A DNA stretch of 64,000 nt, taken from assembly GCA_020466095.1 (NCBI GenBank), contig CM035806.1, positions 110,046,139 through 110,110,138 of the forward strand. The letters are read 5' to 3'. Positions 18,137 through 19,606 of the stretch are shown one piece after another; position 1 is the stretch's first letter, and every line of letters begins with the position of its first letter. Both the position numbers and the translations under genes were made by a program. The notes under the pieces were generated by a model. That model was not told the DNA's origin. It worked only from the letters and a program-made list of their open reading frames with translations, and did not search any database. Source of the stretch: Chlorops oryzae. Taxonomy: Eukaryota; Arthropoda; Insecta; Diptera; Chloropidae.

Positions 18137-19606
18137 ATAATTTCAAAATTTAATATTCCGAGAGTACTGGTGACTGACAACGGCACTAATTTCACGTCAG
18201 CTTTGTTCAAAGAGGTTTGCAAAATTCTAGGCATTAGAAAATCTCAAACTTCGCCATACCATCCCCAAGCCAATGGTTCTCTTGAAAGAAGTCACCGGCC
18301 TCTGGCGGAATTTCTCCGAAATTTTGTCGATGAAGATGGCACGAATTGGGATGAATGGTTGCACCATGCAATGCACGTGCATAATAATACAGTTCATTCA
18401 TCCACTAAACAAACCCCATGTAGGACACTTTTTGGATTCGAATTTGAAATTCCGGTTAAATTAAAACAAAAGCCGGCCCCTGTTTACAATACCGACGATT
18501 ATAGTAAAATTTTAAAATATCAAATTCAACGCAGTCATGAAATAGTAAGAAATAATCAAAAGTTAGCAAAGCTTAAGGCAAAAACTTATTACGACAAAAA
18601 TGTAAATGAAAATAATTTTGTAGTTGGCGACAAGGTCTGGCTTAAGAGCCAAAATCGAAAAAATAAATTTTCACCAATTTGGGAAGGACCGTTTGAAATA
18701 GTTTCTTTGCCATCCGAATCTAATGTAAAATTAAAAATAAAGGGAAAAGATAGAACATTCCATAAAAATTTGATCAAATTAAATCGCGGAATAAATTTTA
18801 TAAAAATCGAAGAAACTCAGAAAAATCCACAAAAACATGAGAAAAAATGTAAACAAAGTAAAGTTGAATCACCTACTGACAGTGCAGTAAATTTTCATAA
18901 CAATAGATCAAAGAACAGAGATGCAGATGTGCCTTGTTTCGATCGCACGCGAGTCAAACTGAGAACAAGTAGAAAAGGAGGATCAGATTACATACACGCG
19001 AACTTTATCGACGGACATAATAAAAAAAATGAATATATCGCAACACAAGGGCCGCTGAAGAACACAATATATGATTTTTGGCAAATGATTTGGGAAAACA
19101 ATTGCGATAACATAGTCATGCTGACAAAAATATATGAAAATGGAGTTGAGAAATGTTATCAATACTGGAGTAAAAATAAAAATGAGCTTATCATTTGCGA
19201 CAATTTTGAAATAAAAACGCTAGAAGTAATTAGTAGGATTGGAATAATTGAGAGTAAAATAGAACTTAAATATATTAAATCGCTTCAAAAACGTATAATT
19301 TCTCACTGGCAATTTTTAGCATGGCCAGACGGCAAAATTCCAAAGATAGATACCTTTCTGCAGTTTTATATAAAATGGAGAGAATCACTATCGAAGCGAG
19401 AAAAAATTGTAGTACACTGTAGTGCAGGTATAAATCGCACATGCACATTTATAGCAGCAGATATAGCGTTACAAAAGCTAGTAGAAAGAAGGGAAATAAA
19501 CTTAATCCAAATAATTCGAAAAATTTGGCAGTGCAGAGCAGGGGCCACATACAAGCCGGAAACAGAACAATTTCTAAAGCACCTATTAAATGCAGTAAAT
19601 TTTTGA
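18137..19606 (+). CDS. integrase C-terminal half fused in frame to a protein-tyrosine-phosphatase domain
   Basis: After the T-run frameshift, integrase continues with its second Asp (VTDNGTNF) and Glu (SPYHPQANGSLERSH). A GPF module follows (WEGPFEIVSLPS, ending 'HKNLIKLNRG' about 18790). With no stop, about 40 linker residues lead into a classical protein-tyrosine-phosphatase domain from about 18911. Its motifs are KNRDADVPCFDRTRVKL, DYIHANFIDG, YIATQGPLKNTIYDFW, the WPD loop in AWPDGKIP and the P-loop VHCSAGINRT. The phosphatase is thus the C terminus of the Gag-Pol polyprotein unless an internal start or splicing is used. In element B the same integrase module ends at a stop right after 'KNLIKRF', with no phosphatase. 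Confidence 0.9.
   Translation: MISKFNIPRVLVTDNGTNFTSALFKEVCKILGIRKSQTSPYHPQANGSLERSHRPLAEFLRNFVDEDGTNWDEWLHHAMHVHNNTVHSSTKQTPCRTLFGFEFEIPVKLKQKPAPVYNTDDYSKILKYQIQRSHEIVRNNQKLAKLKAKTYYDKNVNENNFVVGDKVWLKSQNRKNKFSPIWEGPFEIVSLPSESNVKLKIKGKDRTFHKNLIKLNRGINFIKIEETQKNPQKHEKKCKQSKVESPTDSAVNFHNNRSKNRDADVPCFDRTRVKLRTSRKGGSDYIHANFIDGHNKKNEYIATQGPLKNTIYDFWQMIWENNCDNIVMLTKIYENGVEKCYQYWSKNKNELIICDNFEIKTLEVISRIGIIESKIELKYIKSLQKRIISHWQFLAWPDGKIPKIDTFLQFYIKWRESLSKREKIVVHCSAGINRTCTFIAADIALQKLVERREINLIQIIRKIWQCRAGATYKPETEQFLKHLLNAVNF
18911..19603 (+). other. protein-tyrosine-phosphatase domain within the pol frame
   Basis: This is a classical (class I) phosphatase core of about 230 residues, close to the usual length from the KNRY loop onward. 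The N-terminal helices before that loop are short or missing. The catalytic Cys (codon 19418-19420) and Arg (19436-19438) of the HCX5R signature are present, as is the general-acid Asp (19328-19330) in WPD. Unusual features are KNRD instead of KNRY, so the aromatic residue that stacks on phosphotyrosine is Asp here, and an Asn where the P-loop usually has Gly (SAGINRT). The Q-loop region reads KPETEQF, not the common QTxxQ. It could be active, altered in specificity, or a binding pseudophosphatase. Confidence 0.88.

What the first reader, a model, noticed from the sequence alone, without database searches (positions are those of the whole stretch)
18911..19603. Protein-tyrosine-phosphatase domain fused to the integrase of an env-bearing LTR element
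Seen: one uninterrupted frame runs from integrase catalytic motifs through the GPF module and a linker of about 40 residues into a classical tyrosine-phosphatase core. That core includes YIATQGPL, the WPD loop and VHCSAGINRT. Known: insect errantiviruses normally end pol with integrase; tyrosine phosphatases occur in bracoviruses and baculoviruses, but I know of none as a retroelement pol domain. Inference: a host or viral phosphatase was captured and would be packaged with Pol, perhaps to alter phosphorylation in the infected cell or of the integration complex.
Basis: partly seen in the sequence, partly recalled or inferred. Interest (0 to 1): 0.95.

Follow-up and report, generated by a model that had tools for sequence, protein, structure and literature searches.

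The report
Retrovirus-like elements with captured tyrosine phosphatase
A large group of retrovirus-like jumping elements in an animal (probably insect) genome has fused a cell-signalling phosphatase to its DNA-inserting enzyme and also carries a second borrowed protease, which suggests that these genome parasites interfere with their host cell's protein modifications.

Summary
Window 18911-19603 encodes a classical tyrosine phosphatase (PTP; Pfam E 4.6e-67) in frame after the integrase (IN) C-terminal module of a 13.1-kb LTR element (LTRs 6 of 657 sites different, CTTG duplication). This copy's pol is broken, also inside IN. It is no chimera: the genome holds at least 168 PTP copies. Of 64 places read, 60 have IN upstream and 40 have both in one frame. 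A separate ENA protein, P0004, has the same fusion. Element PTPs form one clade (99/95) beside PTPN9/MEG2. The host's own MEG2 gene is intron-bearing; the element PTP is not, so capture from spliced RNA is likely. dN/dS is 0.22 in the one comparison with moderate dS. Not noticed before: a Ulp1/SENP-type protease gene lies between env and the 3' LTR, split here by a mariner; 79 of 150 PTP rows have a listed Ulp1 downstream. A related lineage has no listed PTP (0 of 88 rows). What the enzymes do is inferred. Seven literature searches found no description.

The parts
11879..12535 (+). 5' LTR, 657 bp (TGTTG...CAACA), preceded by target-site duplicate CTTG
   Evidence: 6 mismatches to the 3' LTR over 657 bp; CTTG on both outer sides
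12536..12556 (+). primer-binding-site-like stretch (TGGCGCAGCCGGTA) just after the 5' LTR
   Evidence: the resemblance to tRNA-Ser-type sites of fly errantiviruses is recalled, not tested
13247..15055 (+). gag ORF, 602 aa with CCHC zinc knuckles
   Evidence: PF00098 E 2.3e-05
15220..17322 (+). pol, protease-RT-start of RNase H; ends at an in-frame stop in this copy
   Evidence: (RVT_1 E 1.3e-34; RVP E 1.3e-4)
17512..18135 (+). pol, RNase H end, IN zinc-binding domain and first part of IN core; leaves frame at about 18130
   Evidence: (Integrase_H2C2 E 1.9e-19; rve E 6.8e-6)
18170..19606 (+). fused frame: second half of IN core + GPF-type module + linker + PTP
18911..19603 (+). classical PTP domain (PTPN9/MEG2-type catalytic domain)
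   Evidence: pLDDT 92.5; the six best PDB fold matches are MEG2
19643..21106 (+). env ORF with Baculo_F homology and an RQKR-GLINAIG cleavage/fusion-peptide-like site
   Evidence: PF12259 E 7.5e-8; site read from the sequence
21563..21661 (+). N-terminal piece of a Ulp1-like ORF (MELMCSYKINNRV...)
   Evidence: in 18 of the 20 nearest Ulp1 copies the ORF reads on across the mariner site (exceptions L031, the window itself, and L048)
21664..22961 (-). mariner transposon inserted in the Ulp1-like ORF of this copy
   Evidence: (98% to another mariner at 9444-10741; inverted repeats)
22962..23684 (+). C-terminal piece of the Ulp1/SENP-type cysteine protease ORF with His, Asp and Cys motifs
   Evidence: PF02902 E 6.8e-11; SENP5 E 1.1e-9
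24312..24324 (+). polypurine tract directly before the 3' LTR
24325..24981 (+). 3' LTR, followed by CTTG
51466..54229 (+). second, related but PTP-less element (IN 65% aa identical; env match begins about 110 bases after the IN match); decayed
   Evidence: 0 of 88 rows of its lineage (IN piece 81-100% identical) have a listed PTP within 3 kb

Best explanation
This is one damaged copy of an old and very successful clade of env-bearing, errantivirus-like Ty3/gypsy elements. Shown: the clade carries the catalytic domain of a PTPN9/MEG2-type tyrosine phosphatase at the C-terminus of integrase, so that Pol reads PR-RT-RH-IN-PTP, and a Ulp1/SENP-type protease gene lies between env and the 3' LTR. 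Both were kept, mostly with their catalytic motifs, while the clade split into at least five subfamilies in this genome. Inferred: the PTP was captured once, through spliced mRNA, because the element PTP is intronless across a position where the match in the host MEG2 gene breaks off. Inferred: PTP is made at the low level of Gag-Pol, enters particles with Pol and is present in the cell where reverse transcription and integration take place; there it removes phosphotyrosine from host signalling proteins or from proteins of the integration complex. Inferred: the Ulp1-like protein, a separate gene that may be made from a spliced RNA, removes SUMO (or a related modifier) from host proteins. Its most attractive target is the SUMO-dependent piRNA silencing machinery that represses gypsy-type elements. 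Together they would form a two-enzyme counter-defence or host-modulation module.
For: Fusion: ORFs and Pfam. Genome-wide: 152 PTP matches reported at 39-100% identity from 150 of 533 candidates scored (150 rows transcribed); with 19 further non-overlapping rows, 169 places, two of them adjacent pieces of one copy. 29 of 150 are in open frames of at least 1000 aa and 15 of at least 1500 aa. Of 64 places read, IN is upstream in 60 and in the same ORF in 40; the PTP is stop-free in 50, of which 46 keep CX5R. P0004, an ENA protein, has the same fusion: IN module 31 of 54 residues identical, PTP 94 of 220. Origin: element PTPs plus P0004 are one clade (99/95), with MEG2 of Helobdella as neighbour (92/79), then a CRAL-TRIO-PTP protein (94/96). 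PTPN9 is the best single-domain PDB sequence match for both, and MEG2 takes the six best fold matches. Host MEG2: CRAL-TRIO exons and, next to them, a PTP exon whose match ends after ISTQG, where the element reads on. Selection: dN/dS 0.22 for PTP and 0.09 for IN between subfamilies A and B. PTP and Ulp1 share the A-rich third positions of gag/pol/env. Linkage: 79 of 150 PTP rows have a listed Ulp1 0.3-8 kb downstream on the same strand against 3, 0 and 1 in control positions; env lies upstream in 18 of the 20 nearest Ulp1 copies. In 16 of the 79 pairs the gap is under 1.3 kb, too short for a whole env, so PTP and Ulp1 seem to outlast env. SUMO in piRNA silencing: PMC7272611 (passages) and the abstract start of PMC13195609 (listing).
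Against: No expression, enzyme activity or particle data. In subfamilies A, B and E the P-loop glycine is replaced by Asn (15 of 42 motif-bearing copies) and subfamily A lacks a recognisable Q-loop, so activity there is uncertain. Four of 50 stop-free copies lack CX5R (L030, a fragment; L088, L089, L090). PTP evolves faster than IN. Between-subfamily dS is saturated or above 2.5 for PTP in all but the A-B comparisons. 71 of 150 PTP rows have no listed Ulp1, though both lists are truncated. The MEG2 neighbourhood in the tree has 92/79 and 94/96 support, and neither a polydnavirus PTP nor a full insect MEG2 domain was in it. The host intron is read from the end of a match, not from a transcript. 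Env loss in the short-gap pairs is inferred from spacing, not read.
Confidence: 0.72

Rival explanations
1. Assembly chimera or a one-off insertion of a host phosphatase gene next to an element.
For: None beyond the fact that this copy's pol is broken.
Against: Same fusion at dozens of places on several contigs, at 39-100% identity, in one open frame in 40 of 64 places read, and in a separate ENA record.
Confidence: 0.01
2. The PTP is real and conserved but works as a binding module (pseudophosphatase or substrate trap, or a tether that steers integration as a chromodomain does), not as an enzyme.
For: It sits where chromoviruses carry a chromodomain. The P-loop Gly is replaced by Asn in subfamilies A, B and E, and A lacks a recognisable Q-loop. 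[quoted passage not shown]
Against: CX5R is kept in 42 of 45 and WPD in 44 of 45 copies with an open near-complete PTP, and subfamilies C and D and P0004 have a canonical P-loop. A pure binding module would not need these.
Confidence: 0.25
3. The PTP came from a polydnavirus (bracovirus or ichnovirus) rather than from a cellular MEG2.
For: Bracoviruses and ichnoviruses carry PTPs that are among the best viral fold matches (Microplitis mediator bracovirus 32% identity, TM 0.92). The top viral match, F4ZGM5 (unnamed, 37% identity), is about as similar as MEG2.
Against: Element PTPs are nearest to MEG2 by tree, sequence and fold. Named polydnavirus hits aligned over 235 or more columns and ranked in the top ten show 28-33% identity against 38-40% for MEG2; some shorter polydnavirus alignments reach 36-39%.
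Confidence: 0.08
4. PTP is not made as a Pol fusion but from its own spliced RNA, and acts as an accessory protein independent of particles.
For: The stretch between the aligned IN and PTP matches varies between subfamilies (31 to 184 nt in copies with complete matches).
Against: The frame is continuous with IN in 40 of 64 places and in P0004. Selection to keep a shared frame would not be needed for a separate RNA.
Confidence: 0.15

Closest known systems
Insect errantiviruses / insect endogenous retroviruses (gypsy, 17.6, ZAM; Metaviridae)
   Same: LTRs, 4-bp target duplication, gag, pol with PR-RT-RH-IN, baculovirus-F-like env
   Different: Pol continues past IN into a PTP, and a Ulp1-like gene follows env; neither is known to me in errantiviruses and neither was found in the searches
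Chromoviruses (Ty3/gypsy with a C-terminal chromodomain)
   Same: An extra folded domain captured at the C-terminus of Pol (PMC12440569, passages)
   Different: The extra domain is an enzyme of phosphotyrosine signalling, and the element has env and a second captured enzyme
Orchid Gypsy elements with an AlkB m6A demethylase (PMC9289625; abstract and passages read)
   Same: LTR element that captured a host enzyme able to reverse a host modification
   Different: Separate ORF, RNA demethylase, plant host; here a Pol fusion plus a Ulp1-type gene in an animal element
Polydnavirus (bracovirus) PTP gene family
   Same: PTPs carried by an insect-associated virus and expanded into many diverged copies (PMC4553618, passages)
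   Different: Separate genes on segments made by wasps, not fused to Pol; origin unclear in that review, whereas here MEG2 is indicated
Ginger and Crypton DNA transposons with Ulp1-type proteases
   Same: Mobile elements that carry a C48 protease; in Ginger together with a Gypsy-like integrase (PMC2836005 and PMC3212892: search listing only, the rest recalled)
   Different: Those are DNA transposons; here the protease lies between env and the 3' LTR of a retroelement

Membership tests
Errantivirus-like LTR element | Two LTRs with short target-site duplication | tested here: met
   657-bp LTRs, 6 mismatches, CTTG on both sides
Errantivirus-like LTR element | gag, then pol in the order PR-RT-RH-IN | tested here: met
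Errantivirus-like LTR element | env related to baculovirus F protein | tested here: met
   PF12259 E 7.5e-8
Errantivirus-like LTR element | RT or IN falls inside the errantivirus clade in a tree with named members | not tested
   no named errantivirus sequences were fetched
Classical protein tyrosine phosphatase (PF00102) | HC-X5-R P-loop, WPD loop, PTP fold | tested here: met
Classical protein tyrosine phosphatase (PF00102) | pTyr loop and Q-loop | tested here: inconclusive
   the window copy has a substitution in the pTyr loop and subfamily A has no recognisable Q-loop; most copies of subfamilies C and D keep the pTyr loop
Classical protein tyrosine phosphatase (PF00102) | Catalytic activity | not testable with these tools
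   needs recombinant protein
PTPN9/MEG2 | PTP domain clusters with MEG2 | tested here: met
   (92/79, 94/96); no full insect MEG2 domain in the tree
PTPN9/MEG2 | N-terminal CRAL-TRIO (SEC14) domain | tested here: not met
   IN precedes the PTP and no CRAL-TRIO family is reported; so it is a MEG2-type catalytic domain, not a MEG2 gene
Ulp1/SENP protease (C48) | C48 family match with His, Asp and Cys motifs | tested here: met
   all three motifs in 16 of the 20 nearest copies, the window included
Ulp1/SENP protease (C48) | Cleaves SUMO or a related modifier | not testable with these tools
   needs enzyme assay

The most novel reading that the evidence does not exclude
A clade of insect-type endogenous retroviruses carries a two-enzyme counter-defence module: a phosphotyrosine phosphatase delivered with integrase in the particle, which resets host signalling in the newly entered cell (for example vesicle fusion, MEG2 having been solved with NSF and MUNC18-1 phosphopeptides, titles, or STAT signalling), and a SUMO protease made in the expressing cell, which strips SUMO from the Piwi/Panoramix/Su(var)2-10 silencing machinery. 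The pair is retained even where env has been lost.
Probability: 0.3. Interest if true: 0.96.

Novelty: new variant of a known kind. Interest (0 to 1): 0.88.

Why it matters
Fixation of extra domains in LTR elements is considered rare (PMC9289625 abstract), and I know of no case of a tyrosine phosphatase in a reverse-transcribing element's Pol. If active, it would mean that a retrovirus-like particle brings a signalling enzyme into the cell together with integrase. The paired Ulp1-like gene gives a direct, testable link to an open question: whether gypsy-type elements, which are silenced by SUMO-dependent piRNA machinery, fight back. The presence of lineages with and without the PTP in one genome gives a natural comparison.

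Tried and rejected
Rejected: chimeric assembly; host gene read-through (LTRs, target duplication and PPT enclose the PTP).

Led nowhere: viral-contig scans with the fused protein and with a 30-row PTP alignment (7 pattern matches, none a relative by tblastn). The protein search with a stop-free 802-aa piece of L061, region 545-802, listed the 120 best of 3868, led by receptor-type PTPs where named; none shows an RT or IN domain in its precomputed Pfam list. The search with P0004 (120 best of 2485) added no second fusion. Since P0004 itself has no IN family in that list, this screen could miss fusions, so both searches neither support nor exclude more of them. Literature: searches list no paper whose title or abstract start speaks of a PTP or Ulp1 gene in errantiviruses (for no paper holds both words); find-in-text of PMC12992720 and PMC12440569 for phosphatase and Ulp1 gave 0. 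Subscription journals are largely not held, so this is not proof of novelty. The place of the PTP-less second element in the IN tree is unresolved (60/68).

Limits of counts: score only the best candidates (150 of 533, 150 of 823, 65 of 516, 150 of 3446). I transcribed 150 of 152 matches reported, 150 of 151, and all 150 rows (126, the other 24). From I added 19 of its 65 rows, chosen as not; one search found no overlap. Unplaced contigs may duplicate some copies. In one search loci L023-L027 (the same places as L051-L055) and L031-L050 (Ulp1) were left out; L028 and L056 are one place. In one search the element rows were thinned to nine representatives out of 45.

Full report
What was claimed.

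Check in the window. ORF 18170-19606 (478 aa) contains the second half of the IN core, a GPF-type module, a linker of about 40 residues and a PTP. Pfam gives PF00102 at E 4.6e-67. In 5000 base shuffles of the PTP DNA the frame never stayed open (mean 18.8 stops). The element is bounded by 657-bp LTRs at 11879-12535 and 24325-24981 with 6 mismatches, CTTG duplicates, a PBS-like stretch and a polypurine tract. It encodes gag, pol and a Baculo_F-type env. The copy is damaged: pol has an in-frame stop at 17320-17322 and leaves its frame near 18130 inside the IN core, so the first catalytic Asp is in another frame. Its PTP has a pTyr-loop substitution; of eight other subfamily-A copies with an open PTP seven have the usual residues and one (L010) does not match the motif. 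The near-identical LTRs suggest a fairly recent insertion.

A second captured gene. Between env and the 3' LTR lies a Ulp1/SENP-type protease ORF (PF02902 E 6.8e-11; SENP5 E 1.1e-9 with the His, Asp and Cys motifs aligned). A mariner at 21664-22961 splits it after its first 33 codons. Among the 20 nearest copies (the window included as L031), 18 read on across the mariner site (not L031 and L048), the intact ORFs have about 275 codons, 13 of 20 matched stretches are stop-free, 16 of 20 keep all three motifs and 18 of 20 have env upstream.

The genome. The host genome has 442 Mb in 1044 contigs. It is unnamed; an insect, probably a fly, is a guess from the element types. A PTP search reports 152 matches from 150 of 533 candidates scored, at 39-100% identity. 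With 19 further rows of a search with a MEG2 protein there are 169 distinct places, two of them adjacent pieces of one copy, so at least 168 copies unless unplaced contigs duplicate some. Of 150 transcribed rows, 29 lie in open frames of at least 1000 aa and 15 of at least 1500 aa. I read 65 loci (64 places): IN upstream within the fetched flank in 60 of 64, in the same ORF in 40 of 64, PTP stop-free in 50 of 64; of those 50, 46 keep the CX5R motif (the other four are L030, a fragment, and L088, L089, L090). In 45 copies with an open near-complete PTP, WPD is kept in 44 and CX5R in 42; of the 42, 27 have the canonical P-loop Gly and 15 have Asn.

A separate witness. P0004 (362 aa, ENA, contig of 1312 bases, organism not given) is the end of an integrase fused to a PTP: the IN module is 31 of 54 residues identical, the PTP 94 of 220. 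Its WPD and P-loop motifs are canonical.

Origin. In a tree of 36 PTPs the nine element representatives and P0004 form one clade (99/95), next to MEG2 of the leech Helobdella (92/79) and a CRAL-TRIO-PTP protein (94/96). The best single-domain PDB sequence match is PTPN9 for the window PTP (156 bits; next family 138) and for P0004 (188 bits; next 165); two-domain receptor PTPs have higher totals. The predicted model (pLDDT 92.5, pTM 0.91) has MEG2 in its six best fold matches (38-40% identity). The host's own MEG2 gene was found by CRAL-TRIO matches on contig C3 (the two best 37% and 35% identity, E about 1e-13 and 1e-12). The fetched stretch beside them holds a PTP exon, 52% identical to Helobdella MEG2, whose match ends after ISTQG; I read an intron there, without transcript support. 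The element reads on across that position. This points to one old capture from a spliced MEG2-type RNA. The donor species is unknown.

Selection and co-inheritance. Between subfamilies A and B dN/dS is 0.22 for PTP (dS 1.25) and 0.09 for the IN part. In the other between-subfamily comparisons PTP dS is saturated or above 2.5 (where it can be computed dN/dS is 0.14-0.18). Within subfamilies C and D, at dS of 0.04-0.05, it is 0.17 and 0.29. The IN tree recovers groups seen in the PTP tree (subfamilies A, C, D), with most deeper forks unresolved. PTP and Ulp1 have the same A-rich third codon positions as gag, pol and env (0.43 and 0.45 against 0.37-0.42), unlike the mariner (0.29) and the jockey-type element (0.26).

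PTP and Ulp1 belong together. Of 150 PTP rows, 79 have a listed Ulp1 on the same strand 0.3-8 kb downstream; the three control positions give 3, 0 and 1. In 16 of the 79 the gap is under 1.3 kb, too short for a whole 1.46-kb env, and four of these lie in frames of 1513-1587 aa. So PTP and Ulp1 seem to be kept where env is reduced or lost, which argues for a role inside the cell rather than in entry. The missing env is inferred from spacing.

A lineage without PTP. The second element in the window (51466-54229) has IN 65% identical, and its env match begins about 110 bases after its IN match. A search with a 60-residue IN piece of it (150 rows) shows that of 88 rows at 81-100% identity none has a listed PTP within 3 kb, whereas 33 of 62 rows at 80% or less have one. 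Open frames of at least 1000 aa are 1023, 1078, 1230, 1231, 1240, 1274 and 3210 aa in the first group. In the second they are 1058-1608 aa for rows with a listed PTP (seven of 13 at 1539-1608) and 1045, 1210, 1351, 1362 and 1367 aa for rows without one. The step from about 1230-1274 to 1540-1608 fits linker plus PTP. The PTP lists are truncated, so a missing listing is not proof of absence for a single row.

How it probably works. Shown: architecture, conservation, motifs, low dN/dS in the usable comparison, linkage of two captured enzymes. Inferred: PTP is made with Pol, is packaged, and acts in the cell where integration takes place; substrates may be host signalling proteins or the integration complex. 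Inferred: the Ulp1-like enzyme removes SUMO. [quoted passage not shown] A SUMO protease would be an obvious counter-measure. A catalytically silent binding role, mainly for subfamilies with the altered P-loop, remains open.

Known relatives. Chromodomains are the known precedent for a captured C-terminal Pol domain (PMC12440569, passages read). An AlkB demethylase in orchid Gypsy elements is the nearest precedent for a captured host enzyme (PMC9289625, abstract and passages). Bracovirus PTPs are a parallel case in another kind of insect virus (PMC4553618, passages). No paper found describes a PTP or a Ulp1 gene in errantivirus-like elements.

Verdict. Real, conserved, and stranger than reported: a new variant of a known kind of element with two captured enzymes of host protein modification. 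Function remains to be tested.

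Noticed in passing
window 21563-23684: Ulp1/SENP-type protease gene between env and 3' LTR, split by a mariner in this copy; 18 of the 20 nearest copies read on across that site.
   Followed up: yes
window 9444-10741 and 21664-22961: Two mariner copies 98% identical, inserted 12 kb apart; other mariner-type copies at about 3.6-4.8, 35.6-36.7 and 47.9-49.1 kb are about 99% alike over long stretches.
   Followed up: no
G000:C2:69270390: An IN match of the PTP-less lineage lies in an open frame of 3210 aa, far longer than any other listed; possibly a gag-pol fusion or a further captured domain.
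   Followed up: no
G000:C1:80845326, C3:46661684, C3:66244170: Open frames of 1351-1367 aa without a listed PTP, about 100 aa longer than those of the PTP-less lineage; could hold a diverged PTP or another extra domain.
   Followed up: no
e.g. G000:C1:108722993, C3:80066911, C2:68775465: PTP in open frames of 1610-1618 aa at eight places on three large contigs with near-equal scores, which suggests a recent burst of one subfamily.
   Followed up: no
PTP-Ulp1 pairs with gaps of 608-612 bp (C907, C1:99388244, C2:55140594, C3:87586960, C3:57395726): Five copies share a short PTP-Ulp1 spacing: probably a subfamily that lost env and still multiplied.
   Followed up: partly
BFVD entries F4ZGM5 and F4ZGZ8: The best viral fold match to the window PTP (37% identity, 555 aa) is an unnamed viral protein; its source may bear on the origin of viral PTPs.
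   Followed up: no
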